This document shows positions 377 to 50,671 of a stretch of 64,000 nt of DNA, in pieces. The translations under genes and the position numbers were made by a program. The notes under the pieces were generated by a model, which saw only the letters and a program-made list of their open reading frames with translations, ran no database searches and was not told the DNA's origin. The stretch covers positions 95,359 to 159,358 of IMG/VR virus record IMGVR_UViG_3300036770_008729. One strand, 5' to 3'. This DNA is from a virus. Within the stretch, counting starts at the first letter, position 1. Every line of letters begins with the position of its first letter.

Positions 377-579
377 TAGTTATTTGTACAGATGTGGACA
401 ATGTAGGTTCTGATATGAAATTATCACTTACAATAGGGAAATCATATAAGGTCATTAGAGAAAATAATATAGGATTTTATTTAGAAGATGACCGTGGTTC
501 TATTCAATGGTATTCTAAATGGAGGTTCAGTAGGTCAGAGTGGAGAGATAATCAAATAGATAAAATATTATTTACTTAG
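373..579 (+). CDS. Small protein with shared C-terminal motif
   Basis: A 68-residue protein, probably a small beta-barrel, ending in EWRDNQIDKILFT and so carrying the shared tail. It stops with TAG at 577-579, one of several genes here using TAG as a normal terminator. Its end overlaps by a few bases the end of the convergent CCA-adding enzyme gene. Unknown function. Confidence 0.65.
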   Translation: MIVICTDVDNVGSDMKLSLTIGKSYKVIRENNIGFYLEDDRGSIQWYSKWRFSRSEWRDNQIDKILFT

Positions 580-1736
580 AATTTTTCTATCTCAATTCTT
601 TTAATCTCTTCACCGAGTTCTTTTCCTTTAAATCCTTTATCCATTAAGTCCTTAACCGATACGGTTGGTTTCCAATCAACAAATTTAATTATATTAATGT
701 CTTTGATTTTACAGACATCAATCCATTCTAATATAGTAGAATCTTTTATATGACAACCTAATTTGAGTTTATAAATATCAATTAATTGTTCTGGTTTGAA
801 TGATTGTAGTCTTAATAAAAATTCAACTTTGTTTGCTACTTCTCCTTCAATTTTGTATTCATCTATTAATTTTTTTGATAACCCTACAGGATTTTCTAAT
901 TTAAATAAATGTGATATCACTACAACAAAATCTTTACTATTTATTGTAATTGTGTTGATAGAAGCTCCTGGAAAAACTTCATCCCACATATCAAATTTTG
1001 TAAAGAAATTTAAGTAATGATTAAAATCTTTCGCCTGAGACCAAGCCTTCTTAAACTCTTCCCATATTCTTTCCGCTGATATTCTTTTAATCTTACCAGT
1101 CTCTGGATCTATATTAGATAGTTGTTTTCTCTTTTCAATTGCCCTTTCCGTATCTTTATGTAGAGGATGTCCATATCTCGATGCGAATCTAAAGGCTCTT
1201 AAAATTCTAAGTGAATCTTCATCAAATCTTTCGACTGGATCACCAACCATACGAGTTATTCCACTTTCTAAATCTTGCCTTCCACCTACCAAATCAACCA
1301 CTTCTTTTTTATCTAAATCATAAAATAAAGAGTTGTAAGTGAGGTCACGACGCTTGACATCATCTTCAATGGTAACACCTAATTTAACTTCAGGATTTCT
1401 TCCCTTAGAAATGTCTTGTCTAAAAGTAGCGATTTCCATTCCACCTGGTTGATCGTCAGTGTAGACAACTACTACACCGAAAGCTTTACCTTGTAAGTTA
1501 AAGTCATAGTTGTATGATTGTAGTATTTTAATAACCTCATCAGGAAGAGCATCGGTTGCTAAGTCAAAGTCTTTTGGTTTATCACCAGTTAGGAAATCAC
1601 GAACTGATCCACCAACTAAATATAGTTTTTTACCAGCTTTTCTAAAAATGTTATTCAAATCTTTAACTGATTTTGGAATATAATCCCACATATCCGTTTT
1701 TGACTCCAAAAACTGTTCATACTTTTTTAATTTCAT
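576..1736 (-). CDS. cca: CCA tRNA nucleotidyltransferase
   Basis: A class II tRNA nucleotidyltransferase of 386 residues, which adds or repairs the 3' CCA of tRNAs using CTP and ATP. The head domain has GGSVRD at about residues 42-47 and the catalytic DFD at 56-58. RRDLTYNSL (129-137) and EDSLRILRAFRFASR (173-187) follow, as in the family. It fits the three tRNA-type genes in the window, none of which encodes CCA. The protein begins MKLKKYEQFLES, the N-terminal tag seen on many phage proteins here, so it may be packaged in the virion (inference). AT-rich GAATATATAC lies just upstream. Confidence 0.93.
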   Translation of the reverse strand: MKLKKYEQFLESKTDMWDYIPKSVKDLNNIFRKAGKKLYLVGGSVRDFLTGDKPKDFDLATDALPDEVIKILQSYNYDFNLQGKAFGVVVVYTDDQPGGMEIATFRQDISKGRNPEVKLGVTIEDDVKRRDLTYNSLFYDLDKKEVVDLVGGRQDLESGITRMVGDPVERFDEDSLRILRAFRFASRYGHPLHKDTERAIEKRKQLSNIDPETGKIKRISAERIWEEFKKAWSQAKDFNHYLNFFTKFDMWDEVFPGASINTITINSKDFVVVISHLFKLENPVGLSKKLIDEYKIEGEVANKVEFLLRLQSFKPEQLIDIYKLKLGCHIKDSTILEWIDVCKIKDINIIKFVDWKPTVSVKDLMDKGFKGKELGEEIKRIEIEKF

Positions 1737-5970: not shown

Positions 5971-7512
5971 TTAAATAATCCTTAAGTATCTCGGAGTTTT
6001 GAACTTATCGGTTTCGATTGATAGAGCGTATCTCATTATTTTTGTAATCAAAGAATTAGATTCTTTGTGACTTACATTATGTAGTTGTAATATAGCAAGA
6101 ATAATTTGCATAGACTGAATTCTTGATATAAGTCTATTTTCACTTTTTGAAATATCAGTTCCTCTTTTTATAGGCTCAACTATTACTAATTGTCCACCTA
6201 TCGAATCTCTATATTTTTTACACTGTGTAATAAGTTCCATAGTATAACTTTTTAACTGGTCAATGCTAAGTTGTTTTAATTCATTATATGATTGAAGATT
6301 TTGAATTTTATAACCAGAGCTAATTTTCTGATCAATGAATCTTTTAATTGCATTAAAAGAGATTTTACCATGTCTTGATGTTGAACCTTCTACTTCACCG
6401 TCTACATTGACATTATTTCCTGTATTAGAAGAATCAAAATTAATTTTTCTATCTTTTATATCCACATCTTTGTTATTTCTATGTTTCCAAATAGAAGTTG
6501 TAGATATTTTCGAACCAATACCTTTTAGGTCAGATCCAACATGAAATGATTTAATGAAGAAATCTGGTGGATTTTTATCAACCATTGAATTGGTTAATAC
6601 TCCAAAACGTGATCCAATTTTTTTAAGAGATACTCCGATTAATAATTTTTCATCAAATAAACTATTCATTTCGTCTTTTAACTTATGGATGTCTGTACAC
6701 TCATCAATTCGATTATTTACTTGTTCTACATTATTTCTTGATACTAAATACATATCCGCTGGACAAAACTTAGATATGTTTATATCAGACCAACCACCAT
6801 CTTTTGCAAATTTTTTATATTTCTTTTCTATATGAACATAAGGGGAACTATTTCCTACAAATGAGGCGTGATAAATCTCATATAAGTCATTAGTATTAAC
6901 ATATTCTTCTTTCCAGATTCTATTTGGAATCTTACAAAAAGTATTAACCCAATCTTCATCCTGTAAAAAGTCATCTAGTAATTGTTCATTTACTTCAACT
7001 TTTTCTGGTGTGAAAACCAACTTTTGCATTTGAATATACTTATAGAAGAATTCCCTCATATTTCTTGAAGTCAATAATTTATCAGGTAATGCTTGTTTTA
7101 TACCAAAAAATAAACACTGAACTGATTCAAAGTTTCTAACCATTACACCAGCACCCGATGATCCAAACTCTTTAGTCTTTTTGAATTGATTGATTTTGAA
7201 CTCTTTACCATCTTTACTCATGAACACAGGAATATATCTACTACCTGGTTTGAAATAAGACTTAGCCTTATCTATATCGTATTCATCATCTGTAGTAATT
7301 TTATCAATAGCAATCTCTGGTTCAACCCATTGTGAGTCGGACTTCATTTTATCAACCTTAATTTTCTGATTGCTAGTTGTGGTAAGTTCTTCTTTGTTTT
7401 TAATTTTGGTTATAAGAACATCTCCTCTTTTTTGACCATTTATCAATTTACCAAGTTCTGTTAAATCAAGTTCTGTTTCTTCTAGGAATTTTTTGAATCT
7501 CAACAATTTCAT
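5971..7512 (-). CDS. Large N-terminally tagged protein, possible virion protein
   Basis: A 513-residue protein that starts MKLLRFKKFLEE, matching the N-terminal tag family, with possible cleavage at the Leu-Glu-Glu. It is otherwise not assigned. Features include KFCPADMYLV (about 244-253) and LIGVSLKKIGSRFGVL (about 291-306). Such elements occur in uncharacterised, possibly nuclease-like T4-like phage proteins; this is an impression, not a domain call. ATTAATATATAC on the minus strand just upstream fits the candidate late promoter. Packaging in the head is inferred from the tag and promoter only. Confidence 0.7.
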   Translation of the reverse strand: MKLLRFKKFLEETELDLTELGKLINGQKRGDVLITKIKNKEELTTTSNQKIKVDKMKSDSQWVEPEIAIDKITTDDEYDIDKAKSYFKPGSRYIPVFMSKDGKEFKINQFKKTKEFGSSGAGVMVRNFESVQCLFFGIKQALPDKLLTSRNMREFFYKYIQMQKLVFTPEKVEVNEQLLDDFLQDEDWVNTFCKIPNRIWKEEYVNTNDLYEIYHASFVGNSSPYVHIEKKYKKFAKDGGWSDINISKFCPADMYLVSRNNVEQVNNRIDECTDIHKLKDEMNSLFDEKLLIGVSLKKIGSRFGVLTNSMVDKNPPDFFIKSFHVGSDLKGIGSKISTTSIWKHRNNKDVDIKDRKINFDSSNTGNNVNVDGEVEGSTSRHGKISFNAIKRFIDQKISSGYKIQNLQSYNELKQLSIDQLKSYTMELITQCKKYRDSIGGQLVIVEPIKRGTDISKSENRLISRIQSMQIILAILQLHNVSHKESNSLITKIMRYALSIETDKFKTPRYLRII

Positions 7513-7515: not shown

Positions 7516-7527
7516 AGTATATATTAA
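7516..7527 (-). promoter_or_regulatory. Candidate late-type promoter
   Basis: Read on the minus strand this is ATTAATATATAC, ending a few bases before the start codon of the large tagged protein at 7512. It matches the motif upstream of other tagged genes. Confidence 0.5.
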
Positions 7528-10340: not shown

Positions 10341-10352
10341 TTTAATATATAG
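10341..10352 (+). promoter_or_regulatory. Candidate late-type promoter
   Basis: TTTAATATATAG lies four bases before the ATG of the first gene in a run of six tagged genes. It fits the TTAATATATA element repeated upstream of other tagged genes. Confidence 0.5.
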
Positions 10353-10355: not shown

Positions 10356-11282
10356 ATGAAGTATTTAAAAACTTTTGAAGAAATTTATTATGATTCTAGA
10401 AAACCGGTTGATGGTTATATTGACGCTAATGATTTAGTTGGTCAAAGATTGTGGTTTCATACTAATAGAACACACCGAAACAATGGTTGGAATGGTATGA
10501 TTGGTATTTATGATACTACAAGAAGTGGTAGAAAAATAGGATTAGCGGGTAAATATACAAATGAAGTTAGATTAACTTCTCCAATTTTCTTTCAGACATC
10601 AGAGGCAGGTGCTGAAAATATAAAATCTAAAGGTGATAGAACTTTAATTGCTGGGGTTTCTGGTGTGGTGATTCCGACTGATAGTAATACTTCTGGAATG
10701 CAAAAAATCACTTACAATCCTTTTGATGTCGGGTATTTTCATTTACTAGATGATAGTGGTAAAAAGGAAATAGTTTCTGCTGATGAAGTTTATTTTGTGG
10801 CTTCCGAAGATGGAAAATGGGAAATATGGGCAATGAATCCAAAGTTTAAATTATTAAAAGAGAATAGACACTACCGTGGAGAACATCCTAAATCAATGCC
10901 AGATGAAGATAAAGATTATATCAATGATATTTTACTTGAACTTCAGTTATTGGATATGAGATATGAAATTGTAGAGTGTTGGTATCACAAAGACGAATCT
11001 GACCAAACGGTTGGTAATATACATAAACATAGTCGTCCTGAAGAACTGATAAAGTCATATAGGTCGATTAAAGTAAGTTTATATGATAAGGAAAGGAGAT
11101 TTTTTAGAATAGATGATATAGACTCCGTTTTAACAAGTCTTAAGGTATGGTCATCGGGTAAATATGAAATTGATTTATCTTGGCCAAACGAAATGATTTA
11201 TTTACCAATGGAAGATTTTATAGATGAGTTTGGTGGTGAAGAATTATATACAATAGACATTTACATTTACAAAAGAAATTAG
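10356..11282 (+). CDS. N-terminally tagged protein, unknown
   Basis: A 308-residue protein beginning MKYLKTFEEI. The middle has a beta-rich part with several Gly and Asn (about 25-170). An Asp/Glu-rich C-terminal half contains YRGEHPKSMPDEDKDYI. No family is recognised. It heads the tandem block of tagged genes 10356-13435 and ends in TAG three bases before the next ATG. A packaged internal virion protein is the working inference. Confidence 0.65.
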   Translation: MKYLKTFEEIYYDSRKPVDGYIDANDLVGQRLWFHTNRTHRNNGWNGMIGIYDTTRSGRKIGLAGKYTNEVRLTSPIFFQTSEAGAENIKSKGDRTLIAGVSGVVIPTDSNTSGMQKITYNPFDVGYFHLLDDSGKKEIVSADEVYFVASEDGKWEIWAMNPKFKLLKENRHYRGEHPKSMPDEDKDYINDILLELQLLDMRYEIVECWYHKDESDQTVGNIHKHSRPEELIKSYRSIKVSLYDKERRFFRIDDIDSVLTSLKVWSSGKYEIDLSWPNEMIYLPMEDFIDEFGGEELYTIDIYIYKRN

Positions 11283-11285
11283 GAG

Positions 11286-11828
11286 ATGAAATACTTAAAG
11301 AAATATAAATTATTTGAATCCACTCCTGATGAAGAATGGAGTACAGTAGAAGAAAGAGAAAATACTATTAGACATATATCACTTGAATTTGAAGACGTTG
11401 GACTTATATGTAGTATTTCTAAAGTCAGAAAAGATGTTGAATTAGAACCAGACCGTTATAATGGTAAAACAAAAACTGATCTCTTTTTAGAAGTTTATTT
11501 GTCAAGAAATTGGTATTCACCAAATAGAGAAATACCTGGTGTAGTAAATCCTGAAGGTGGTTACCCTGGTAATCTTATTTTCTGGTATGAAATCAAAAAT
11601 ATAATCATTAGAATTGCTAAATGGTATTATGAAGTAGAGAGCATTTATGATCCTATAAGTAAAGATGCTGTTTATAGAGATGAAAAGGAGAAATCACCTT
11701 TGAGATTCTTTGGTAGTGGAATAGAGATGTTGATTGGTTGTAGTAAAGAAGAGGATTTTGAGAAATTAGGTGATTTTATTTCATTTACTAATTTTAGAAT
11801 AATGATTAAAATATCTGAACAAGTATAA
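11286..11828 (+). CDS. N-terminally tagged protein, unknown
   Basis: A 180-residue protein starting MKYLKKYKLFES, the clearest form of the tag, with L-F-E followed by Ser as a possible processing site. The rest is a mixed alpha/beta sequence without known motifs. AGGAG immediately precedes the ATG, and the gene follows its neighbour by three bases. Confidence 0.65.
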   Translation: MKYLKKYKLFESTPDEEWSTVEERENTIRHISLEFEDVGLICSISKVRKDVELEPDRYNGKTKTDLFLEVYLSRNWYSPNREIPGVVNPEGGYPGNLIFWYEIKNIIIRIAKWYYEVESIYDPISKDAVYRDEKEKSPLRFFGSGIEMLIGCSKEEDFEKLGDFISFTNFRIMIKISEQV

Positions 11829-11832
11829 AGTT

Positions 11833-12336
11833 ATGAAGTGGATAAAATTATATGAAAATTTCGATGATAACATTTCTATTGAAAAAGATGTTGAAGATAT
11901 ATTCTGGGACTTAGAGGGATTTAAAGTTGAGATTTCATTCTGGGTAAATGGTGCTCGTGGTGGTTTTTTGGCAAGTGATGAGTCTGGATCGCAAAAATAT
12001 GGACCAATTGCAGATAATGGTAAATTATACTTAAAAGTTGAGGTCAAAAAAATAGAACCACCTGGTAACTTCCTTACAAAAGATGGTTTTAATTGGATAG
12101 AAACTAAATCTTACTTTAATAGATTGAGAAGTTTTTTAAGCGAGTATAGTCCAGTTAAATATAAAATCAACACTATGGTATTTAGCCACGCACCTCGTTT
12201 TAGTATTGTTAGTAACGCTGAAATACACGATACTTATCAAACATCATTTGATTATGTTGATTCTAAATATATAGAAAAAGATTTTACAGATAGGAATACC
12301 TTAACATCGGTATATTATTTTTTTGAAAGATTATGA
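11833..12336 (+). CDS. N-terminally tagged protein, unknown
   Basis: A 167-residue protein starting MKWIKLYENFDDN, a Trp-containing variant of the tag. It shares the general layout of its neighbours: a tag, an acidic linker and a small mixed domain. It overlaps the next gene by four bases (ATGA). Function unknown. Confidence 0.65.
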   Translation: MKWIKLYENFDDNISIEKDVEDIFWDLEGFKVEISFWVNGARGGFLASDESGSQKYGPIADNGKLYLKVEVKKIEPPGNFLTKDGFNWIETKSYFNRLRSFLSEYSPVKYKINTMVFSHAPRFSIVSNAEIHDTYQTSFDYVDSKYIEKDFTDRNTLTSVYYFFERL

Positions 12337-12983
12337 AATACTTAAAATTATTTGAAGAAGCCACTAATGTTCCTGATTACTTTTTACCATTAGAAAGTAT
12401 CAATCATTATTTAGATCCGAAATCTGGTGTGATTTATCCTATATTAAAATCTGGTGGATATGATGAAAGAAATGATTTTGATTTAGAAGCCTTTACTTCT
12501 GGTCCTGAAGAAGCTCAAATTCCTGGAGATGCTCCAACTGGAAATATTTCAGATGAAGATCAAATGATTATAGACCAGTATCGTCAGTCAACTGAAAAGT
12601 ATTTCAAAGATAAAATTAATTGGAGTTTAATAGATTTAGCAAAAGAAAGGTCTTTAGAAATAATTGATAATGGAGGTAGGTTATTAATCTCTGTTTCTAT
12701 TAAAGTTTCAAATACCTCATCATTTTTTATCTATTATGAGGATATAACTCACACAAGACCTAAACAATTCTGGAATATGTATTTTGAAGATTCAATGTCT
12801 ATATTGTCGAAATGTACAGGCGAATTAATTTATAATTTTTTATTATCAACAAAGTTAAATCAAGCTAACCTCCCTTGGGGTGAGGATTATATATCTTATA
12901 AAACAGGTGATACAGAAACCAGTGAATTGGTCAGACTACTTCATAAGTTATATCCTGAAGAGAATATAAAGGCGATGAATTAA
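12333..12983 (+). CDS. N-terminally tagged protein, unknown
   Basis: A 216-residue protein starting MKYLKLFEEAT. An acidic, Pro/Gly-rich segment at about residues 50-75 looks like a flexible linker before a helical domain. No family recognised. It is in the tagged operon between two other tagged genes. Confidence 0.65.
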   Translation: MKYLKLFEEATNVPDYFLPLESINHYLDPKSGVIYPILKSGGYDERNDFDLEAFTSGPEEAQIPGDAPTGNISDEDQMIIDQYRQSTEKYFKDKINWSLIDLAKERSLEIIDNGGRLLISVSIKVSNTSSFFIYYEDITHTRPKQFWNMYFEDSMSILSKCTGELIYNFLLSTKLNQANLPWGEDYISYKTGDTETSELVRLLHKLYPEENIKAMN

Positions 12984-12985
12984 TA

Positions 12986-13435
12986 ATGAAACACCTAAAA
13001 AAATATAGATTATTTGAATCACAGAAGTATAATATGGGTGATTTTATGGATATCATTTATGATTTGCGTCTTAGGTGTTATGACTTTAACGATGGTGGTT
13101 GCACTTGGAAAATTCTACCGGAAGAAGAAATACAAATCAACTTACTTAGACTTGCCTATAATAGAACTATTGAGTCTAAAGGCGTTGTATTTAAGTTATT
13201 AATTGATATACGAAATATAAAATCAGATGATGATCTTAATTCTCAATCTCTACCTAATTGGTTTATCAATAAATGTCTAGAAATAGAATCAATGATGAGA
13301 ATGTATGGATTTAAAACTCTACCTTCTATCAAAAGACCAACTGACTGGGAACATTTTGACACAATTGACGAACTAAGTGAGGCAAGTGGTCTTTTTAGAG
13401 AAGTTCAACTTCTTTTCAGAAAAATTGGAGAGTAG
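12986..13435 (+). CDS. N-terminally tagged protein, unknown
   Basis: A 149-residue protein starting MKHLKKYRLFESQKY. Almost the same string recurs inside the amidotransferase fusion at 50673-51857. The remainder has several Trp and Cys residues but no known motif. It ends in TAG and is the last of the first tagged run. Confidence 0.65.
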   Translation: MKHLKKYRLFESQKYNMGDFMDIIYDLRLRCYDFNDGGCTWKILPEEEIQINLLRLAYNRTIESKGVVFKLLIDIRNIKSDDDLNSQSLPNWFINKCLEIESMMRMYGFKTLPSIKRPTDWEHFDTIDELSEASGLFREVQLLFRKIGE

Positions 13436-13566
13436 AAGATGGGGGAGTGGACATCTACTTTTATGATTGGCATTTCTCGCTAATGCTAGCCCCTAATTCC
13501 CAATCAACCAATTTATTTCCAAATATAATAATTAAATTTATATATAACTAAAATTAATTTCTTATT
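13436..13566 (+). other. Noncoding stretch with nested hairpins
   Basis: No gene is seen. Inverted repeats pair 13465-13469 with 13501-13505, and 13470-13474 with 13482-13486 around a seven-base loop. G-run 13441-13445 could also pair with the C-run at 13490-13493. It has no T arm and is not a tRNA. It could be a small structured RNA or a weak terminator. Confidence 0.25.
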
Positions 13567-13647
13567 ATGTTCAGTTCGGGAAACATCTTCATTATGATTT
13601 TTGGCATTCTGTTAGCCTTAGGATTAATTTTTAATTTTAATATATAA
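13567..13647 (+). CDS. 26-residue membrane peptide
   Basis: A short frame, ATG to TAA, encoding a peptide with one hydrophobic segment (IFIMIFGILLALGLIF) and no charged residues. This would be a single membrane helix. Its end coincides with the AT-rich promoter-like element before the next gene. Coding is uncertain at this length. Confidence 0.35.
   Translation: MFSSGNIFIMIFGILLALGLIFNFNI
13635..13647 (+). promoter_or_regulatory. Candidate late-type promoter
   Basis: TTTTAATATATAA lies three bases before the ATG of the tagged gene at 13651, and is nearly identical to the element at 20453. Confidence 0.5.
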
Positions 13648-13650
13648 GTT

Positions 13651-14070
13651 ATGAGATACTTAAAGTCATATAAAGTATTTGAGATAAGAGAAAGTCCTTA
13701 TTTAGATGGATCGGATAGTCCTATGAAAGTTAAATATGGAAAAGAAGTTATTGATAAGTGTGATGAGGTGATTGAGTATATCAAACAGATTATGTTAAAC
13801 TTAGAAGATTTGAAATTTTATTGTTATGTGAATTACACACCTTTAACAAAAGTTTATCAGGAAGTTGAGCCTATTTTATTTGTTGATATAAGTCAGAATC
13901 CAGAAATACCATTAGATGAAGAAGCAAAAACAGAACTTGAGTATACAATAGAATCAATTAAAAAATATATTGATTCAAAACATTTTTTCCTAACTGATTA
14001 TCGTTTTAATGATAGAGGTGTTGAAAAGTATTCAGCAAGATTCTATCCAAAACCTGAAAAGCAAAACTGA
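13651..14070 (+). CDS. N-terminally tagged protein, unknown
   Basis: A 139-residue protein starting MRYLKSYKVFEI, a variant of the tag with V-F-E in place of L-F-E. It is acidic, with a helix-rich middle. It is followed one base later by another tagged gene. Not recognised. Confidence 0.62.
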   Translation: MRYLKSYKVFEIRESPYLDGSDSPMKVKYGKEVIDKCDEVIEYIKQIMLNLEDLKFYCYVNYTPLTKVYQEVEPILFVDISQNPEIPLDEEAKTELEYTIESIKKYIDSKHFFLTDYRFNDRGVEKYSARFYPKPEKQN

Positions 14071-14071
14071 T

Positions 14072-14719
14072 ATGAAATACATTAAAACACAAGAAGAATT
14101 CAATGAAGGGTTCAATCTTAAAAAAGCACTAATCGGTGGTGCAATAGGGGCATCTATTGGTTTTTCCGCTTTACATCTTTCAGAAATTGATGGTAAAGCA
14201 AAAAAAGAAGATACTGAAATAGTATCTGGTCAGAAATTCGATCAATTTGATGTTTATGTTAATAGTGAAGAATTTGATCTCAATATATCCGAAGATGGTG
14301 TAATAACTTCAGAATGGACTGAAGAACATGGTTCTGGTAAAAACAGAACTACACATACTTATAGAGGAGCTACCGTTCCAAAAGGCACAACCGATATATG
14401 GGTCGAATCAAAATTCGCTGAAATAAATGGCAATGTATTTGTTAGCACTAAGCCTTTACAAAATGGCAATCATATTAGATTATCCGATTTAGATATAGAA
14501 GAACAAACTGCCACCTATACAATCTATAGTGGTGGTATGTTTGGTGACTTAGATTATATCATAGTTGATAATGGACATGTTGATGGTGAGGAATTCACAA
14601 TTGATGGTAAGATAGGTAATTGGAGTTGTGATAAATTAGGAAGTCATATTTATAGTTTCACCTTTAAAAACTTTGGTGGAGGATCTGGTGGTGGTGCTGG
14701 AAGTGGAGGAAAATTTTAA
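14072..14719 (+). CDS. Tagged membrane-associated protein with Gly-rich tail
   Basis: The ATG at 14072 follows the previous stop by one base and gives 215 residues; a longer in-frame start at 14009 lies within the upstream gene. The protein starts MKYIKTQEEFNEGF. A Gly/Ala-rich hydrophobic stretch (about 19-37, ALIGGAIGASIGFSALHL) could span or associate with a membrane. A Thr/Gly-rich beta region follows, and the end is Gly/Ser-rich. Possibly a virion or ejected protein, inferred from the tag. Confidence 0.6.
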   Translation: MKYIKTQEEFNEGFNLKKALIGGAIGASIGFSALHLSEIDGKAKKEDTEIVSGQKFDQFDVYVNSEEFDLNISEDGVITSEWTEEHGSGKNRTTHTYRGATVPKGTTDIWVESKFAEINGNVFVSTKPLQNGNHIRLSDLDIEEQTATYTIYSGGMFGDLDYIIVDNGHVDGEEFTIDGKIGNWSCDKLGSHIYSFTFKNFGGGSGGGAGSGGKF

Positions 14720-20452: not shown

Positions 20453-20466
20453 TTTTAATATATAAC
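20453..20466 (+). promoter_or_regulatory. Candidate late-type promoter
   Basis: TTTTAATATATAAC lies two bases before the ATG of the tagged metallopeptidase-like gene, nearly identical to the element at 13635. Confidence 0.5.
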
Positions 20467-20468: not shown

Positions 20469-21035
20469 ATGAAACATCTAAAAAACTATAAGTTATTTGA
20501 AAATTTAAATACACCTATCAGTATAGAACAATTCTTATCTGAAATCAATTTCCCTCAAGAATTAAGAACACAAGTAATAAACTGGTGGAATTTAAACAGA
20601 GGTGAATTTATAATTCATTGTTTTAATTTCTCATCACCTCAACCAATAGCTGGTGTTTTTCTTGGTGTAGATGAAATTGCTATCAATAAAAGATTACCAA
20701 TGCCACCTCATATTAAATTATTTTTAGCTCTTCATGAATCTGGACATTGTAATCAACACAGAGAAGGAAGATTTATGACTGGTTATTATGACACCGTAAT
20801 TGCTGGTAACAAACCAGCCTTTTTACAAGCCTATATGGATCTTGAAAAAGAAGCTAATGACTATGCTTTTAATTCATTAAGAGAGATGGGATTAGAAAGA
20901 TTGTATCAATTTGAGGAATCTAGATTAAGAGGAAATCAAAGAGCAGGTGAAATGGTTTGGTCAATGATGACTGCTGATATAGCGAGATTCAATCCTAATG
21001 ATTTTATTGACCTTTTGAAAAAACAAATACTTTAA
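20469..21035 (+). CDS. Tagged zinc metallopeptidase-like protein
   Basis: A 188-residue protein beginning MKHLKNYKLFEN, with the N-terminal tag. The HExxH zinc site is HESGH at 89-93. A later Glu in DLEKEANDYAF (about 124-134) is a plausible third ligand, as in ImmA/IrrE-type peptidases (HELGH ... E-x-EA-N-x-FA). A tagged protease could be packaged and delivered into the host to cleave a host protein; this is inference. Substrate unknown. Confidence 0.7.
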   Translation: MKHLKNYKLFENLNTPISIEQFLSEINFPQELRTQVINWWNLNRGEFIIHCFNFSSPQPIAGVFLGVDEIAINKRLPMPPHIKLFLALHESGHCNQHREGRFMTGYYDTVIAGNKPAFLQAYMDLEKEANDYAFNSLREMGLERLYQFEESRLRGNQRAGEMVWSMMTADIARFNPNDFIDLLKKQIL

Positions 21036-21645: not shown

Positions 21646-22005
21646 ATGAACTGCAAATTAATTTTTACCATAATTTTTCTAATCACTTCGATTGTTGTTA
21701 AGTCGCAAACATTCAATATCACTGATAGAAATGGTTATACCGATGAAGTTATTGTCAAATACCAATCAGCTTTGAATGGTGCTGATTTAGAAAATTTCAG
21801 AGGAAAAACAATCACAAAAACATTCGAGTTTACAAACGGAATAAAGTTCACTCTAATTTCTGCAAAAGAACTTTTCATTTCCGGAAAATCAATCGACTTA
21901 AATCTTTACAAAGATGAAAGACCAGAAAGTTACAGAGAGCCTGTTTTCTTTCTGACCGATACTGGTTACTTATTGGCTCAATATAAAAAATTAGAAAAAC
22001 AATGA
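21646..22005 (+). CDS. Small secreted protein
   Basis: A 119-residue protein with an N-terminal signal peptide (hydrophobic FTIIFLITSIVV, likely cleaved after about residue 20). The rest is hydrophilic and beta-rich. It overlaps the adhesin gene's start by four bases, so the two are probably co-expressed and possibly both exported. Unknown function. Confidence 0.6.
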   Translation: MNCKLIFTIIFLITSIVVKSQTFNITDRNGYTDEVIVKYQSALNGADLENFRGKTITKTFEFTNGIKFTLISAKELFISGKSIDLNLYKDERPESYREPVFFLTDTGYLLAQYKKLEKQ

Positions 22006-31476: not shown

Positions 31477-31900
31477 AGAAAAAAACACTTTCATAATTGA
31501 GTTACTTACTCAATCAACTAAAACTGGAAATCTCGTTTGGTCAGAAATTAGCACTAACGATAATCGTAGAAATTATTACAGAAATATGACCGCTACCGGT
31601 GAAGATGGAACTAAATATGAGATAGAAATTAGGTATTCACTCGCTGGTGATTTTTTCAATTTAGATACAAACCCTAGTGTATTTTTAAGAAATAATAATC
31701 TTCCAAATGGATTATATATGATTAGTCTGCTTAATACTGAACCAGACGTATTAGTCAATTTAAGAGATTTGGTTAAAGAAATGTTTTGTAAAGACCTAAA
31801 TCCAACCTCACAAATTATAGAAGATACATTAGATGTAATTAGTAAAGGTATTTCTACATCTGAATACCGTGAAAATAAAATCAATAAACTTTTAGATTAA
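31469..31900 (+). CDS. Small protein with shared C-terminal motif
   Basis: A 143-residue protein ending in EYRENKINKLLD. It overlaps the preceding gene's end and converges with the methyltransferase at 31892. Not recognised beyond the tail. Confidence 0.6.
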   Translation: MLKEKNTFIIELLTQSTKTGNLVWSEISTNDNRRNYYRNMTATGEDGTKYEIEIRYSLAGDFFNLDTNPSVFLRNNNLPNGLYMISLLNTEPDVLVNLRDLVKEMFCKDLNPTSQIIEDTLDVISKGISTSEYRENKINKLLD

Positions 31901-32673: not shown

Positions 32674-33246
32674 ATGTTTAATTTTATATTACTTTGTATT
32701 GTAGCCTACCTTTTAGGTGCAATTCCAACAGCAATTTTAATAGGTAAATTATTCTTCAAAAAGGATATCAGACAATATGGTAGTGGTAATTCTGGTGCAA
32801 CAAATGCTTTAAGAGTTTTTGGACCTTTAGTTGCCTTATTTGTTCTATCAATTGATGTTCTGAAGGGATTTGTTGCGGTATCATTATCAACTAATCCTGA
32901 AATACAATTTTTCTTATGTCTTTCTGTTTTAGCTGGTCATATACTACCTATCTTTGCTGACTTCAAAGGTGGTAAAGGTGTGTCTACTACTTTTGGATGT
33001 TTTGCTGCAATAAATCCTCAATTTATAATTTTACCCTTAATTGTTTATATAACTACATTAATTATTACAAGAATCTCATCTCTTTCTTCTATTTTGGCTA
33101 TATTTTCTTTTGTAATCTCTGGATTATTTATACCAAGTAATATATTAATCTGTATGTTATTAATAATTGTTTGTAGTATTATTTTACATACTCATAGAGA
33201 AAATATAGAAAGAATTATAATTGGTAAAGAAAAGAAGTTATTTTAA
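32674..33246 (+). CDS. plsY: Acyl-phosphate:glycerol-3-phosphate acyltransferase PlsY
   Basis: A 190-residue multi-pass membrane protein with all PlsY features: GSGNSGATN near residue 38, AGHILPIF and FKGGKGVSTTFG in the middle, and HRENIERIIIGKE at the end. PlsY makes lysophosphatidic acid from acyl phosphate and glycerol-3-phosphate, the first membrane step of phospholipid synthesis. It is rarely carried by phages. It could increase membrane synthesis during infection or change lipid composition (inference). Confidence 0.92.
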   Translation: MFNFILLCIVAYLLGAIPTAILIGKLFFKKDIRQYGSGNSGATNALRVFGPLVALFVLSIDVLKGFVAVSLSTNPEIQFFLCLSVLAGHILPIFADFKGGKGVSTTFGCFAAINPQFIILPLIVYITTLIITRISSLSSILAIFSFVISGLFIPSNILICMLLIIVCSIILHTHRENIERIIIGKEKKLF

Positions 33247-33822
33247 TTGAATTTCAATCATCTTAATGTTCATTCTTACATCTGTTGCTAAATCTTTTTC
33301 AACAATCACTAGTTCAAGTGGTTCTGCAAATTGCTCTTCTTTTACAAAGTGGTATTCACCATTACTATTTCCTTTATATGCCATTTCTTCAACCCACTCA
33401 TTCATCCCATATTCTAAAACGTCATAATAGTTATTCATTTTGAGTTTTAAGAGTATATCTTCTTGGAATTGATTGATGTTTCTGTAGTAAGTGCTGTTCC
33501 AAACTTTTTCTGAGAAACCTCTTAAATATTGACCAGAGCCTAAATCTAATGTATCATAATAAACTATAATTTTATCTAATTCTAAGTCTTCATTAACAGA
33601 TAAAACCTGTTTAATCTTATTAATAATTTTGAATTGTAAATCTTCAACTTCTTTCAATTGATTTTCCTTTGATCGGAAAAAAATTAAGTATTTTGAATCA
33701 TCCTTACTGGATAAACATACTTCCAAATCAAGTCCTTCATCTTCGGCTAAATCTTCAAAAAGAGATTTGATATAACCAGAATCATTATCTTCAAATAATT
33801 TATAATATTTAATATATTTCAT
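33238..33822 (-). CDS. N-terminally tagged protein, unknown
   Basis: A 194-residue acidic protein starting MKYIKYYKLFEDNDSG, with a clear N-terminal tag. The remainder is a mixed alpha/beta domain without motifs. It converges with PlsY (overlap of nine bases) and follows a late-type element on the minus strand. Possibly packaged. Confidence 0.62.
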   Translation of the reverse strand: MKYIKYYKLFEDNDSGYIKSLFEDLAEDEGLDLEVCLSSKDDSKYLIFFRSKENQLKEVEDLQFKIINKIKQVLSVNEDLELDKIIVYYDTLDLGSGQYLRGFSEKVWNSTYYRNINQFQEDILLKLKMNNYYDVLEYGMNEWVEEMAYKGNSNGEYHFVKEEQFAEPLELVIVEKDLATDVRMNIKMIEIQLK

Positions 33823-33824: not shown

Positions 33825-33840
33825 GGATTATATATTAAAA
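33825..33840 (-). promoter_or_regulatory. Candidate late-type promoter
   Basis: The minus strand reads TTTTAATATATAATCC just upstream of the tagged gene starting at 33822. Confidence 0.5.
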
Positions 33841-45869: not shown

Positions 45870-46181
45870 TCAATATTCGATTTTTGTAATATCTGATAGG
45901 TCAATTTCAAAAGTATTATTATCAATATCTACAGTAACCGTCTTACTATCAACACTTACTGGTGTTATAGGATCTTCTTCTTTATGTTTTATATCTTTAT
46001 TTTTAATATCTTTTAATCCTTTAATTGTTTTTGCGTAGATAACTCCACCTGCTTTTATGCAATTTATCAAGTCTTCTTCTTTAATAAGTGTTCCTTCTTG
46101 ATTATTATTTTTTACCTGCTTTCCACTATCGGGTTTTTTTTGATTTTCTTCAAAATCTTCAAATAATTTTATCCATTTCAT
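45870..46181 (-). CDS. N-terminally tagged small protein
   Basis: A 103-residue protein starting MKWIKLFEDFEEN. A Lys/Asp/Asn-rich linker precedes a small beta-rich end (KTVTVDIDNNTFEIDLSDI). It ends one base after the convergent unknown gene. Tagged and with a late-type promoter on the minus strand. Confidence 0.6.
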   Translation of the reverse strand: MKWIKLFEDFEENQKKPDSGKQVKNNNQEGTLIKEEDLINCIKAGGVIYAKTIKGLKDIKNKDIKHKEEDPITPVSVDSKTVTVDIDNNTFEIDLSDITKIEY

Positions 46182-46185: not shown

Positions 46186-46209
46186 CTATATATTAATTTT
46201 TAATATATA
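46186..46209. promoter_or_regulatory. Divergent candidate late-type promoters
   Basis: The minus strand of 46186-46197 reads ATTAATATATAG toward the tagged gene ending at 45870. The plus strand of 46197-46209 reads TTTTTAATATATA toward the tagged gene at 46216. Both tagged genes are thus fed by the same motif in opposite directions. Confidence 0.5.
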
Positions 46210-46215: not shown

Positions 46216-47127
46216 ATGAAGTATATTAAAAAGTTCAATGAAGAGTTATATCCAGATACTTATAGAAGAGTTGCTGGTAGACATAGAGGTTATGGTAAAT
46301 CTCAATCTATTGAAAAGTCAATGAAATTAGATGATTGGGCTAATTTACAAGAATTTGGATTTTATAATATGCACTTTGCTTGTGGTTCAAGTAAAGTAGT
46401 TACTGGTCCATTTACTAAGCCAGAATTAATTGGTATTTATTATGGTGATGTACCAACGGGTAAAGATGTTAGTGACACTATATATGTTGATTTTATTAGG
46501 AATAATAATCTTAAATCAGGTAATTTAATAGAAATTAAAGCTGAACAAATGATCGATAATTGGTTGAGTGGAAGATCCCGACTCTGTATAACATTTGAGT
46601 TTGGATTAAAGCCAACTAATGAAACTATTGTTGCATCTAACAACCACACTCATCTTAGTTCTGGAAATAAATCAGGAAGATGGAGTGATAGTGTTCCTGC
46701 TTTTTCTATTGAATTAAAATTAAATGATTGGGATGATGGAATAGAATCTTATGATAGTGATGCTAAATGGGAAGCTGAAAATAATGGTGAAGATTTTACA
46801 CCATCATCTGCCGCAGATATGTATGAATGGAACAGTTGTGAGAATTGGTCAATTCAAACTCCTTTGAATAAATACTATTCTGCTATTTTCAGTGATAGAA
46901 AATCAGCTCAAAAGTTTTTAGGATTTTTCAGAGAAACTATGAATAGTCCTATTGTAAAAGAGTGTATTAGAATGCCACTTGGTATTATAAACACTACTGG
47001 TGATCAGATAGAGAAGGTTTTTAAATCTTATGAAAAAGTAAGAGTTCATGGTCTTTATGATGAGAAAATAAAACCTTTACCATCTGGTAAAACACACAAT
47101 GATTATTGGTTTGATAGAATAATATAA
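46216..47127 (+). CDS. N-terminally tagged protein, paralogue 1
   Basis: The ATG at 46216 is preferred over 46210. The 303-residue protein starts MKYIKKFNEELYPDTYRRVA. It shares with the genes at 47142, 48471 and 49298 a tag ending in EEL, a P-x-TY-x-[SR] element and a C-terminal D-[RSK]-[KRS]-SA-x2-F element. A paralogous family of internal-type proteins is likely. Function unknown. Confidence 0.65.
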   Translation: MKYIKKFNEELYPDTYRRVAGRHRGYGKSQSIEKSMKLDDWANLQEFGFYNMHFACGSSKVVTGPFTKPELIGIYYGDVPTGKDVSDTIYVDFIRNNNLKSGNLIEIKAEQMIDNWLSGRSRLCITFEFGLKPTNETIVASNNHTHLSSGNKSGRWSDSVPAFSIELKLNDWDDGIESYDSDAKWEAENNGEDFTPSSAADMYEWNSCENWSIQTPLNKYYSAIFSDRKSAQKFLGFFRETMNSPIVKECIRMPLGIINTTGDQIEKVFKSYEKVRVHGLYDEKIKPLPSGKTHNDYWFDRII

Positions 47128-47141
47128 AATAATATAAAATT

Positions 47142-47987
47142 ATGAAATACTTAAAAAGATTTAACGAAGAATTAAAACCACAGGTTTATAGAAGTGCCGC
47201 GAGAGCTATCTTAAAATCTAAGTTGCCTCCTCAAACTAAACCTGGTGAACTTTCTAAAATAATTAGAAGTCCCGATAAACCTGAATCTGTTTCTGATGAA
47301 ACTTGGAAAAGAGTAACTAAATTGAGGTCACATTCTGATGAAATTGAAAGGAAACAAAACCTTATTAAGTGGAAAGATAATTTACAAGATTATTTATTGT
47401 TTGGTTCATCAAAATTAAGAATTGCTAATCCTAAGAATAGTAAACAATTAGTAGGTGATTTTGCTTTTTACATCAGTTTTGATGAATTGTCATTTGAAGA
47501 TAATTATCAGGAACAAAGGGATAATGAAGATGGTGTGATTAAGATGGGTATTCCACTTTTTGTTGGTATAATTCCTACTTCTGAAGACCTAATTGAACAG
47601 TGTGATGAAGTTGTTCCTGAGCCAGAGTTTGATAATGGATTTTACTGGGCAATGTGTGTCTCAATAGATTTTGAAATTGATGGTGATAATTTAACTTTTA
47701 CTGGAATAGATATTGATAATTATGATACTGGTATGACTGGTGATATAAGTTTTGTGGATAAACCATCAGCTCGTAGGTTTTTACAATTATTAAAGAACAT
47801 ATTTTCTAAAGTTGATTTGAATTACCCATCTGGATATACAGATGAAACTAATTTCTATAAAAAGTTAGAACAAGTAATTTTAATTCGTCAAGGATTTTCA
47901 GCTGATTATGGATTCAACTTAGAACAAGTTTCGGACTTTATACAAGCACAAATAAGTTCTGGATTAGCAGACAAAATTTCAGAATAA
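47142..47987 (+). CDS. N-terminally tagged protein, paralogue 2
   Basis: A 281-residue protein beginning MKYLKRFNEELKPQVYRSAA. It has the family's C-terminal VDKPSARRFLQLLKNIFSK. An N-terminal Lys/Arg-rich linker is followed by an acidic beta domain. Part of the run 46216-50671. Confidence 0.65.
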   Translation: MKYLKRFNEELKPQVYRSAARAILKSKLPPQTKPGELSKIIRSPDKPESVSDETWKRVTKLRSHSDEIERKQNLIKWKDNLQDYLLFGSSKLRIANPKNSKQLVGDFAFYISFDELSFEDNYQEQRDNEDGVIKMGIPLFVGIIPTSEDLIEQCDEVVPEPEFDNGFYWAMCVSIDFEIDGDNLTFTGIDIDNYDTGMTGDISFVDKPSARRFLQLLKNIFSKVDLNYPSGYTDETNFYKKLEQVILIRQGFSADYGFNLEQVSDFIQAQISSGLADKISE

Positions 47988-47989
47988 AT

Positions 47990-48445
47990 ATGAAACACTT
48001 AAAGAAATATAAATTATTCTTAGAATCAACTGATTTAGATTTTGATTTTTTGGCAGCAATTGGTAAAATGAAATTAGCTATTCTGAAAGTGGTTAAGTTA
48101 CACGAAGAGCATTGCTATAAACAGGATAAATTATCCACTAATGAAAGATTTAAGATTTCATTGAACGACTTAATTGATAGTAATATAAATGGTGAACAAA
48201 CATTCACTGAGGATTATCTAAGTGTTATTAATTTGTTTGAAAAAGAAGTTTATGGTGATACTAAATTGAAATTAGTAGAGGAATCTTTATTTGCACATTT
48301 AGATGATTTTATTTGCACTTTCAAAGGTGTTTTAATTCATAAGGATTCAGAAGATTCGAGGAGACTTGAAGAAGATTCAGAACATATATTGAATAAAATG
48401 GATTCAACTTGGGTTCATGCATCAGAAGAATCTGAGACGGATTAA
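47990..48445 (+). CDS. N-terminally tagged protein
   Basis: A 151-residue acidic helical protein starting MKHLKKYKLFLES. It is not an obvious member of the surrounding four-gene family. It lies between paralogues 2 and 3. Confidence 0.6.
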   Translation: MKHLKKYKLFLESTDLDFDFLAAIGKMKLAILKVVKLHEEHCYKQDKLSTNERFKISLNDLIDSNINGEQTFTEDYLSVINLFEKEVYGDTKLKLVEESLFAHLDDFICTFKGVLIHKDSEDSRRLEEDSEHILNKMDSTWVHASEESETD

Positions 48446-48470: not shown

Positions 48471-49298
48471 ATGAAACACTTGAAACGATATAATGAAGAA
48501 TTAAACCCATCTACTTACATAAGTGCTGCTACTAAGTTAAGACAACTCGGTCATGTAAGAAGGCCAAAAGAACTAGAAGATTGGAGTAATTTTGAAAAAG
48601 AAAGGCTTAAAAAACAACAACAATTGTTTAGAAAAGATGAGTTATCACAATTCTCACCATTTAAGTTAAAGTTTTATAAACAAAGGTGGAATTCCGCAAC
48701 AAGAATAACCGAAGAGGATTTCTTAGGAGAAGGCCTTTTTTATGTTGAACCAAGCTTTAGTTCAGATTGGTTTGGTGATATGATGTATGACCATGAGGCA
48801 GATGGAGAAGGTCTTAGTATTCCATTTGAATTTGGAACATCACCAGCAAATGAAGAGACTGAAATAGCTTGGGAAGAAATAAAATCAAAATGCCAAAGTC
48901 TTAAAGAACAAGAATATGACGGTGTTACCTACAATACTAGAATGTGGATTAAATTATTTGATCCAGATAGTTATGTGATTACAAATGAAAATAAATGTTT
49001 CTGGGAAACAGCAGATAATGGTCTTTTTGTTTTGGATAGTAGAGCAGAAGCAATTAGGTTTAAGAAACTAATCATTGACTCTTTAGAAGGTAAAAATCAA
49101 TGGGGTAAGAATAAATGGCACCCAGAAGGGATGTATGGTAATTTTATTAAGTTCTTCCAAAGAGATTTAGAATGGAGAGTAAAAGAAAGAGAAGCTGGGA
49201 GAAATAAATTAGAGCAATACTTCAAACAGGAACATATGCCAATTTTAGCTAATAAAGTTAAAATGGGTTTATCAATAAATGATTTATATAGAAGCTAA
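48471..49298 (+). CDS. N-terminally tagged protein, paralogue 3
   Basis: A 275-residue protein starting MKHLKRYNEELNPSTYISAATKL, with LDSRAEAIRFKKLIIDSLEG near the C-terminus. It shares the paralogous layout. Its stop overlaps the next start by one base. Confidence 0.65.
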   Translation: MKHLKRYNEELNPSTYISAATKLRQLGHVRRPKELEDWSNFEKERLKKQQQLFRKDELSQFSPFKLKFYKQRWNSATRITEEDFLGEGLFYVEPSFSSDWFGDMMYDHEADGEGLSIPFEFGTSPANEETEIAWEEIKSKCQSLKEQEYDGVTYNTRMWIKLFDPDSYVITNENKCFWETADNGLFVLDSRAEAIRFKKLIIDSLEGKNQWGKNKWHPEGMYGNFIKFFQRDLEWRVKEREAGRNKLEQYFKQEHMPILANKVKMGLSINDLYRS

Positions 49299-50671
49299 TG
49301 AAATACTTAAAGAAATATAATGAGGCTTCTGTTTATATACAAAATTCAGATATAAAGAGTTTAGTATATGATAAACTAAGAGAGATAAAGGAAGATATAG
49401 ATAATAATTTCCATATCAATATCATTAATTACATTGAAAGTAATGATGCAAATAATTTGAATAAGAATATTGGAAGAGAATTTGTTAAATGTAAGGTAAT
49501 GAAAGAATCTAATTTTGATTATAGTCAAATTAGTGAAACCATTGAAGGACTTAAAAAGATGATGGAACTTGAAGGGTGGAATCTTTGGGATTATAGTTGT
49601 TACTTAGGTCATAGACCACCAACTGCCAAAATAGAAAGAGAGCTAAATAGAGCTTACAATAGATTTGGTGATGGAAGATGGACTGGGTCTTGTTATTCTT
49701 TTAATATTACCTTTATAAAAGGTGATAATTTGGACTCTCCATATGCTTATATGATGGGTATGAAACAACATCAATTAAAAACAAATGAAGAGTTATTTGC
49801 TTCTACTTATAAATCAGCTGCTGATAAATTGATGGTAAAACATAAAAAAAGAGCTGCTGAGTTGATGAAAATGCATGACTTCAGAAAAAATGAAGAAGAA
49901 AAAGAAAAGCTTCGTCAAGAAGAAATGAGAAAGAATAAAGTAGTTGAAAATGCTGCTCAATTAGGAGTTTATAAGTGTAAGTTAAGAATGTCAAAAGAGG
50001 AATTCATAGGTGATTTTTATCTCAATTTATCATTTGCTGAATATTCATTTGATGAAGATTATCCTTACTTCTTAGATGGTGAAAGTGGTATGTATTTATG
50101 TTTTGCTATTGGTGTAATACCAGCTAATGAAGAATCTAAAGAATGGCTTGATAAGTATGCAAAAGGATTTATTGGTGGTGATAAAGTTACTTATTGGATG
50201 GGAGATCTAAGATTAAAAGCATCTAATGTACAAAATGTTTATCATATGGGTGACTTTCCCGAAGCCCCAACTCCCGGATATGTTAATGATGAGATTTATG
50301 ATAATGGTATAGGTGATGAAACAGTAATTATTTACTATAACTTAACTGATAAAAAGAGATATAGATTTGATATAGAAAATAATAAATGGGTAAGTCATTA
50401 CTTAGAGTTTGAACCTAATGGTTCTATGTATTTTGAAATCCACGAAGGTTATTTTTGTTTGGTTGATAGAAAATCAGCGGTTCAATTCAAATCAAAGTTT
50501 TATGACATATTTGCAGGTAAGATTATTTTCAAACCAGACCAAAATCTTGACCACGTAAAAGATATGATGTTAGAATGTATTTGTAATGAATATGGGCATT
50601 CTATACAAGAGTTTATAGATGTTATGGAATCTATAAAGAGAGTAAAAATCAACACACTTTATAAAGATTAA
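49298..50671 (+). CDS. Tagged fusion protein, paralogue 4
   Basis: A 457-residue protein with two parts. Residues 1-154 start MKYLKKYNEAS and are unrelated to the paralogues. From residue 155 (ATG at 49760) MKQHQLKTNEELFASTYKSA resembles the start of paralogues 1-3, and VDRKSAVQFKSKFYDI matches their C-terminal element. It therefore looks like two tagged genes fused, leaving a degraded tag inside. Confidence 0.65.
   Translation: MKYLKKYNEASVYIQNSDIKSLVYDKLREIKEDIDNNFHINIINYIESNDANNLNKNIGREFVKCKVMKESNFDYSQISETIEGLKKMMELEGWNLWDYSCYLGHRPPTAKIERELNRAYNRFGDGRWTGSCYSFNITFIKGDNLDSPYAYMMGMKQHQLKTNEELFASTYKSAADKLMVKHKKRAAELMKMHDFRKNEEEKEKLRQEEMRKNKVVENAAQLGVYKCKLRMSKEEFIGDFYLNLSFAEYSFDEDYPYFLDGESGMYLCFAIGVIPANEESKEWLDKYAKGFIGGDKVTYWMGDLRLKASNVQNVYHMGDFPEAPTPGYVNDEIYDNGIGDETVIIYYNLTDKKRYRFDIENNKWVSHYLEFEPNGSMYFEIHEGYFCLVDRKSAVQFKSKFYDIFAGKIIFKPDQNLDHVKDMMLECICNEYGHSIQEFIDVMESIKRVKINTLYKD

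What the first reader, a model, noticed from the sequence alone, without database searches (positions are those of the whole stretch)
10356..14719. An N-terminal tag on at least 19 proteins that resembles the T4 capsid-targeting sequence
Proteins of unrelated content start with M-[KR]-[YHW]-[LI]-K-x-[YF]-[x]-[LVE]-F-E or similar (MKYLKKYKLFES, MKHLKKYRLFES, MKWIKLYENFDD, MKYIKYYKLFED). T4 internal proteins begin with a short capsid-targeting sequence (MKTYQEFIAE) that directs them into the prohead and is removed by gp21 after an L/I-x-E type site. Here many tags end in L-F-E or L-Y-E, as if such a site were retained. Carriers include a CCA-adding enzyme, a HESGH peptidase, an amidotransferase fusion and the 5971-7512 protein. 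They would be a cargo delivered with the DNA.
Basis: partly seen in the sequence, partly recalled or inferred. Interest (0 to 1): 0.85.

Follow-up and report, generated by a model that had tools for sequence, protein, structure and literature searches.

The report
Phage proteins tagged for capsid packaging
A relative of the 640-kilobase giant phages puts the same short leader, closely matching the T4 "pack me into the head" peptide, on dozens of otherwise unrelated proteins, which suggests that these giants carry a stock of over a hundred ready-made proteins into the bacterium with their DNA.

Summary
The window has 18 clear tagged genes (a 19th is borderline). The 281-kb record it lies in has about 60, and the nearest complete relatives, the Bacteroidota-infecting Mahaphages of 635-642 kb, have about 100-130 each; shuffled N-termini give 1-3. 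Bodies are unrelated: 195 tagged proteins fall into 164 clusters. The tag has the T4 targeting pattern (hydrophobic at residues 4 and 7) and usually ends in [LIVFY]-x-E|S/N/E. A second form, consensus IKKYNEFINE|S, is almost T4's MKTYQEFIAE|A. This record has no head genes because it is a fragment, but the relatives encode a T4-type S77 protease fused to a scaffold that carries 9-14 copies of EY[ILV]AE|N, next to a gp23-type capsid protein with the site INE|N. A TAATATATA promoter is enriched before tagged genes and also precedes baseplate and fibre genes. Orthologs swap tag forms, or lack the tag, on the same body. I conclude that these are capsid-targeting propeptides removed by the prohead protease: a T4-type system expanded 20-30-fold. 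Virion content, cleavage and injection have not been shown. A further reading, not excluded, is that the tag mimics one unit of the scaffold repeat.

The parts
576..1736 (-). CCA-adding enzyme with tag MKLKKYEQFLE|S (T4-like form)
   Evidence: Tag; PF01743 7e-32 from residue 38, phrog_2244 3e-60 from residue 35. Relatives keep the tag (MKIKKYKQFLES); Caulobacter/Brevundimonas phage homologs lack it and start at query residue ~20
5971..7512 (-). 513-aa protein of unknown function (phrog_1462) with tag MKLLRFKKFLE|E; promoter motif 7518-7526
   Evidence: the W01 ortholog 505739-507316 starts MRFISNFLGFQQVNEA
10343..10351 (+). TAATATATA late-type promoter in front of the first tandem array
   Evidence: enrichment
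10356..11282 (+). tagged protein MKYLKTFEE|I (phrog_586 domain at 57-149)
11286..11828 (+). tagged protein MKYLKKYKLFE|S
11833..12336 (+). tagged protein MKWIKLYE|NFDD
12333..12983 (+). tagged protein MKYLKLFE|EA, of the paralogous 'DDGF' group
12986..13435 (+). tagged protein MKHLKKYRLFE|S
13638..13646 (+). TAATATATA promoter motif
13651..14070 (+). tagged protein MRYLKSYKVFE|I
14072..14719 (+). tagged Gly-rich, membrane-like protein MKYIKTQEEFNE|GF; the true start is the internal ATG at 14072
   Evidence: W01 ortholog 95990-96634 MRNIKTYKQHNEE
20456..20464 (+). TAATATATA promoter motif
20469..21035 (+). HESGH zincin-like protein with tag MKHLKNYKLFE|N
   Evidence: no Pfam match
33238..33822 (-). 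tagged protein MKYIKYYKLFE|D, promoter motif 33829-33837
45870..46181 (-). tagged protein MKWIKLFE|DFEE, promoter motif 46187-46195
46201..46209 (+). TAATATATA promoter in front of the second tandem array
46216..47127 (+). tagged protein MKYIKKFNE|E
47142..47987 (+). tagged protein MKYLKRFNE|E; tagged orthologs in W01 and W02
47990..48445 (+). tagged protein MKHLKKYKLFLE|S
48471..49298 (+). tagged protein MKHLKRYNE|E
49298..50671 (+). tagged protein MKYLKKYNE|A
50673..51857 (+). glutamine amidotransferase (PF00117 at residues 28-196) with N-terminal MKYIKEYIDSISD, fused to a second tagged protein
51300..51332 (+). internal tag copy KIIKSFRLFE|S inside the fusion protein (residues 210-220)

Best explanation
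The leader is a T4-type capsid-targeting propeptide. Late in infection the phage makes many unrelated proteins from a TAATATATA promoter shared with virion genes. Each starts with a 9-16-residue amphipathic leader (MKYLKKYxxFINE|S and shortened forms such as MKYLKLFE|D, MKHLKKFNE|S and MKHLKKYKLFE|S). The hydrophobic residues at positions 4 and 7 dock the protein on the scaffold core inside the assembling head. The S77 protease, fused to that scaffold, then cuts after the Glu of [LIVFY]-x-E, as it does in the scaffold and the capsid protein. The freed cargo stays in the head and enters the host with the DNA. Shown: the tags and their statistics, unrelated bodies, tag swaps and losses on orthologous bodies, promoter association, and protease, scaffold and capsid genes with matching sites in close relatives. 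Inferred: docking, cleavage, retention and injection.
For: Enrichment over shuffles. T4 positive control: the class II regex picks only ipII and ipIII among 63 T4 ORFs. T4 mutagenesis places targeting at CTS residues 4 and 7 and processing at 8 and 10 (PMC9026906); 4 and 7 are the conserved hydrophobic positions here. [LIVMFY]xE lies within residues 5-30 in 60/63, 121/132 and 111/114 tagged proteins, against shuffle means of 41, 83 and 75; E at 8-20 has hydrophobic P3 in 366/644 against 1303/4151 elsewhere. S77 protease in all five relatives, phrog_207 6e-28, MCP phrog_138 2e-23, portal phrog_213 4e-59; protease-scaffold in 80/80 contigs and INE|N in 42/42 capsid proteins parsed. 195 tagged proteins form 164 body clusters. 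Promoter motif: 18/63 tagged v 19/323 untagged (p 1e-6) and 50/132 v 48/800 (p 7e-21); untagged genes with it include a gp5-type baseplate hub and fibre-like proteins. Tag gain, loss and swap on orthologs.
Against: No proteomics for this phage or any Mahaphage turned up in the papers searched. The 281-kb record itself has no protease, MCP or portal gene, so the cognate protease is inferred from relatives. A sizeable minority of tags have F or Y rather than L or I at P3 (TFE|S, RFNE|S), outside the strict T4 rule L/I-x-E. Tenacibaculum phage PTm1 has an S77 protease but almost no tags, so the tag is not universal with this protease. Class II matches include false positives (shuffle background about 6 of 32 in LR756502).
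Confidence: 0.86

Rival explanations
1. Common descent only: the genes are copies of one promoter-plus-start cassette spread by duplication, and the leader has no function of its own.
For: Tandem arrays, an 18-member paralogous 'DDGF' group all tagged, and the promoter often directly upstream.
Against: 195 tagged proteins fall in 164 unrelated body clusters, 152 of them singletons. Identical peptides are coded by many different DNA words. Operon-internal genes without the promoter keep the tag. In a 9-member family with pairwise identities down to 26%, tag residues Y5 and E11 are among the 32 invariant columns.
Confidence: 0.05
2. A translation or mRNA-start element: an A-rich start peptide that helps initiation on very short or leaderless late mRNAs.
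For: The promoter motif ends only a few bases before the ATG in many tagged genes; early Lys codons favour initiation (general knowledge).
Against: Does not explain fixed Glu positions with hydrophobic P3 and small P1' residues, the match to protease sites, or tags on downstream genes of operons. Virion genes with the same promoter lack the tag.
Confidence: 0.04
3. A different address label: membrane, replication compartment or degradation signal, not the capsid.
For: Short amphipathic Lys-rich N-termini can serve such roles; some cargo look membrane-active (Gly-rich proteins).
Against: The leader shows no hydrophobic core of a secretion signal. The pattern matches the T4 CTS residue by residue and ends in prohead-protease sites; related phages with few tags (Chryseobacterium phage MA9V-2) carry MKTFTYFINEA between the portal and protease genes.
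Confidence: 0.05

Closest known systems
T4 internal proteins IPI, IPII, IPIII and Alt with the capsid-targeting sequence (CTS)
   Same: Short N-terminal leader on unrelated cargo, hydrophobics at 4 and 7, end in L/I-x-E|A/S, S77 protease, late expression; IPI even has the distant second site ITE|A
   Different: T4 has about four such proteins; here about 60 in a partial record and about 100-130 per complete genome. Two tag forms and several length variants; P3 often F or Y; cargo are mostly enzymes and unknowns
Chryseobacterium phage MA9V-2 and other T4-type jumbo phages of Bacteroidota
   Same: Protease-scaffold fusion before a gp23-type capsid gene; at least four leaders MKNFFSFINEA, MKTFTYFINEA, MKTFFTFVNES, MKNFFQFINES
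   Different: Only about four to six tagged genes; no 14-residue scaffold repeat
Ejection proteins of SPN3US/phiKZ-type giant phages
   Same: Large bolus of head proteins matured by the prohead protease and injected (PMC5694885, PMC10052503)
   Different: Propeptides often over 100 residues and not shared by many proteins; unrelated head genes
P1 DarB packaging signal
   Same: N-terminal signal that sends anti-restriction cargo into the head (PMC9024508)
   Different: One protein, different sequence

Membership tests
T4-type capsid-targeting propeptide | 10-20-residue N-terminal leader shared by otherwise unrelated proteins | tested here: met
T4-type capsid-targeting propeptide | hydrophobic/aromatic residues at positions 4 and 7 (targeting) | tested here: met
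   strict pattern requires L/I/V/M at 4 and F/Y at 7: 52/413 and 98/985 v 0.6 and 1.3 shuffled; T4 residues from PMC9026906
T4-type capsid-targeting propeptide | ends in a prohead-protease site L/I-x-E | tested here: met
   strict [LI]xE within residues 5-30 in 44/63, 80/132, 71/114 (shuffle means 24, 47, 44); relaxed [LIVMFY]xE in 92-97%. A minority meets only the relaxed form
T4-type capsid-targeting propeptide | cognate S77 protease and scaffold in the same genome | tested here: inconclusive
   absent from this 281-kb fragment; present in all five relatives and 80/80 related contigs
T4-type capsid-targeting propeptide | late expression with virion genes | tested here: met
   promoter enrichment and shared use with gp5-type and fibre-like genes; gp55-like sigma, phrog_234 1e-5. 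Indirect: no transcript data
T4-type capsid-targeting propeptide | tagged proteins are in the virion, processed after Glu, and injected | not testable with these tools
   needs purified virions
T4-type capsid-targeting propeptide | leader is enough to package a foreign protein | not testable with these tools
   needs a fusion experiment

The most novel reading that the evidence does not exclude
The tag works by mimicry: it is one unit of the scaffold's own 14-residue repeat (KNIAYSEYIAE|NLD v tag IKKYNEFINE|S v T4 MKTYQEFIAE|A). Cargo would dock in the core as if it were another scaffold segment and be freed by the same cut, so any gene that gains this short leader becomes an injected protein. 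This would explain why over 100 per genome could be recruited. Basis: the scaffold has 11 matches to the T4-derived pattern, no other LR756502 protein has more than 2, and 80/80 contigs keep 9-14 repeat units.
Probability: 0.35. Interest if true: 0.88.

Novelty: new variant of a known kind. Interest (0 to 1): 0.76.

Why it matters
Most genes of huge phages have no known function. If the leader is a capsid-targeting propeptide, then about a tenth of Mahaphage genes can be assigned at a stroke to one role: proteins carried in the head and delivered at time zero. That would be 20-30 times the T4 set and would bring enzymes such as an Acb1-like phosphoesterase, RNA ligase, SET methyltransferase, lysozyme and a CCA-adding enzyme into the cell before any phage gene is expressed, a good place for counter-defence. 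It gives a sequence rule for finding injected effectors in metagenomes, suggests how a prohead recognises cargo, and offers a leader for loading proteins into very large capsids.

Tried and rejected
PF07068 (Gp23) and PF03420 in the window's own record: no match, explained by the missing head module. PHROGs and Pfam on most tagged bodies: no family. Some regex hits were rejected as false: IMPDH at W01 480100 (internal start; the full-length ortholog shows no tag), a GIY-YIG start (MEKYYIYTLEHN), a 2-oxoglutarate-oxygenase-like start at window 35436 (MVKEYDNFLTEDE), GT47 at record 33620, and probably the SLT and FkbM hits in W01. IMG/VR scans with two tagged cargo proteins as single queries found nothing. 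A phage-nucleus import signal was considered, but no nucleus-shell search was made; the T4-type head genes make it less likely.
Full report
WHAT THE RECORD IS. The window is positions 95359-159358 of a 281,114-base virus record. Its topoisomerase is 71% and 69% identical to those of LR756502.1 (642 kb) and LR745206.1 (635 kb). The sizes match the four largest phage genomes of Al-Shayeb et al. 2020 (634, 636, 642, 735 kb), which belong to the Mahaphage clade with predicted Bacteroidetes hosts (PMC7162821). 159 genes have an LR756502 match, mostly in its 380-640 kb half. Portal, protease-scaffold, gp2-like, gp5 hub and late-sigma genes of LR756502 find no match, and the capsid protein only a 74-residue, 34%-identical one. 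So the record is most likely a fragment without its head module, and the lack of a prohead protease in it is not evidence against the hypothesis. I use W01 for LR756502, W02 for LR745206, W03 for LR756504, W04 for Chryseobacterium phage MA9V-2 and W05 for Tenacibaculum phage PTm1.

THE OBSERVATION. Seven ORFs at 10356-14719 and eleven others in the window start with the leader. Genome-wide, the strict class I pattern occurs at 52/413 N-termini (shuffled 0.57) and in W01 at 98/985 (shuffled 1.3). A second form, class II, was then found: [YFWI]xx[FYW][ILMVTF]xE in the first 18 residues, for example MIKRYQEYITES, MKIIKFTEFINEG, MEVKRYNQFINEA, with consensus I-K-K-Y-N-E-F-I-N-E|S. As a positive control the same class II pattern picked only ipII and ipIII among 63 ORFs of 50 kb of T4. 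Counts for class I / class II: this record 56/9, W01 102/32, W02 85/29, first 340 kb of W03 25/21, MA9V-2 1/5, PTm1 2/3. The class II background is about 3-7 per genome in the larger records, so some class II hits are false; PTm1 is near background and MA9V-2 has about four real ones.

THE TWO FORMS ARE ONE TAG. Intermediates carry the class I start and the class II end: MKYLKKYNTFLNEN, MSFIKKFNDFLNES, MKNIKKFIDFINES (W03), MKHLTKFINYLNES, MKHLQKFFNYITES (IMG/VR contigs). On the same body the forms swap: W01 385173 MKYLRTYEGFDHL v W02 363366 MIIKKYIKFINEEFDHL with bodies 83.5% identical; MIKKWNQFINES v MIKKWNQFNES; MKYIKTYES v MKYIKSYKIFES, a three-residue indel that keeps E|S.

IT IS AN ADD-ON TO UNRELATED BODIES. 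With the tag removed, 195 tagged proteins form 164 BLAST clusters, 152 of them singletons. T4-type RNA ligase is tagged in W01 and W02 (MKKLHRYNSFIKES, MKLFKYIEFINEN) but not in this record (MNIKRYIPTYEEA); a 256-aa W01 protein starts MKYLSKYNMFIEQ while its ortholog here starts MKKHLQSIELYHVG, at the body. In the CCA-adding enzyme the homolog in Caulobacter phage C1 begins at about our residue 18-20, and the one in Brevundimonas phage Kabachok likewise starts without the leader. In one family the conserved body VGLAEPTL starts just after [LI][NK]E in three genomes. In W01 70611 and W02 95930 the body MIKVPIKVGDT follows directly on LFE| and FDE|. Identical tag peptides use diverse codons, which argues for selection on the peptide.

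THE END OF THE TAG IS A PROHEAD-PROTEASE SITE. T4 gp21 cuts after L/I-x-E (PMC9026906); T4 gp22 itself contains IFE|S, LFE|S and LAE|N. In the tagged set 92-97% have [LIVMFY]xE in residues 5-30, against 63-66% after shuffling; 61-70% have strict [LI]xE against 36-38%. Glu sits mostly at positions 8, 9, 11 or 12, with P3 L/I/F/Y, P2 F/N and P1' S/N/E/D. The relatives' own processing sites, inferred from sequence, are the same: MCP HSINE|NAY and HQINE|NAY (42/42 parsed IMG/VR copies have INE|N), end of the protease domain VLNE|SL or SLNE|SC, and 17-20 [LIV]xE|[SNAGED] sites per protease-scaffold protein.

THE MACHINE IS THERE IN RELATIVES. All five relatives have an S77 protease (PF03420; above the curated cut-off in two, E 4e-6 to 1e-4 below it in the three huge genomes). 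PHROGs confirms head-maturation protease (6e-28), major head protein (2e-23) and portal (4e-59) in W01, in the order portal, protease-scaffold, capsid protein as in T4. PTm1's protein is already annotated 'prohead core scaffolding protein and protease'. In the huge phages the scaffold part is a 14-residue repeat, KNIAYSEYIAENLD, found in 80 of 80 IMG/VR contigs that carry this capsid gene.

LATE EXPRESSION. TAATATATA lies in the last 25 nt before 18/63 tagged v 19/323 untagged genes here (p 1e-6) and 50/132 v 48/800 in W01 (p 7e-21); untagged genes with it include a gp5-type baseplate hub and large fibre-like proteins. W01 has a gp55-like late sigma (phrog_234, 1e-5). In the window the two tandem arrays (10356-14719 and 46216-51857) each begin with this motif. 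The pattern alone could match by chance in AT-rich DNA; the neighbouring tags are the stronger evidence.

CARGO. Most tagged proteins match no family. Matches include CCA-adding enzyme and glutamine amidotransferase (this record); RNA ligase, PPK2 kinase, DHH phosphoesterase, phage lysozyme, SET methyltransferase, DUF4314 and a 2H phosphoesterase related to the anti-CBASS protein Acb1. The Acb1-like protein is tagged in all three genomes (MRIKSYIQFIKES, MIKKYLEFMKES, MKLKKYKQFIKES); its match to the solved Acb1 is weak (E 0.011), so the function is a lead. An 18-member paralogous group (motif DILLELxDDGF) and a 9-member family with zinc-ribbon-like tails, whose tag residues Y5 and E11 are invariant, are the largest shared bodies. 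The amidotransferase of the window is fused to a second protein that still has its own tag inside (KIIKSFRLFE|S, 51300-51332); the protease could split the two in the prohead (inference).

MECHANISM. The best explanation is a T4-type capsid-targeting propeptide system in which the number of cargo genes has grown from about four to over a hundred. Docking on the scaffold, cleavage, retention and injection are inferred from T4. Beyond that, the leader looks like one unit of the scaffold repeat (tag Y-x-E-F-I-N-E|S, repeat Y-S-E-Y-I-A-E|N, T4 Y-Q-E-F-I-A-E|A); W01's protease-scaffold has 11 matches to the T4-derived pattern and no other W01 protein has more than two. A plainer reading is that the aromatic residues are part of the protease's recognition site. 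T4 mutagenesis (positions 4 and 7 for targeting, 8 and 10 for cutting) favours docking, but this is not settled.

KNOWN OR NEW. Capsid-targeting sequences are known from T4, and an N-terminal packaging signal from P1; giant phiKZ-type phages inject many head proteins with other propeptides (PMC5694885, PMC10052503, PMC9024508). In the open-access papers that I could search I found no report of this leader in Mahaphages or of such a number of tagged genes. I therefore rate it as a new variant of a known kind.

Noticed in passing
window 22002-25619 and 27244-28662: Two large secreted phage proteins; the first ends in IPNAFTPNGDGKND...FWIYNRWGEQIW, which looks like a type IX secretion (type B) sorting domain, and the second in a similar sorting-like tail. 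This points to a Bacteroidota host.
   Followed up: no
window 10343-10351 and 13638-13646 and similar sites: The TAATATATA motif ends only about 4-8 bases before the start codon in many genes, so if it is a -10 type promoter the late mRNAs would be nearly leaderless.
   Followed up: partly
window 51300-51332: Internal copy of the tag with its cleavage site inside an amidotransferase fusion: possibly a two-protein cargo that the protease would split.
   Followed up: partly
L036:5272-7371 (LR756502 225272-227371): Prohead protease fused to a scaffold with a regular 14-residue repeat KNIAYSEYIAENLD, 9-14 units in all 80 related contigs checked.
   Followed up: yes
LR756502 10-37 kb (L025, L026): Dense arrays of about 28 tagged genes, many with a shared DILLELxDDGF motif of unknown function.
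   Followed up: partly
A2 alignment; LR756502 321131-322663 and 251650-253161: Tagged 400-510-aa family with motif GRALLWK...FMDRIYT and, in some members, DnaJ-like CxxCxG zinc repeats at the C-terminus; no Pfam or PHROGs match for the members scanned.
   Followed up: partly
record 58927-59460 (L005:18927-19460, - strand): Tagged 2H phosphoesterase weakly like anti-CBASS Acb1 (PDB 7t26, E 0.011); candidate injected counter-defence protein.
   Followed up: partly
window 31892-32620, 33872-34675, 54502-55425, 61652-62470: Four proteins that look like DNA methyltransferases, none with the tag.
   Followed up: no
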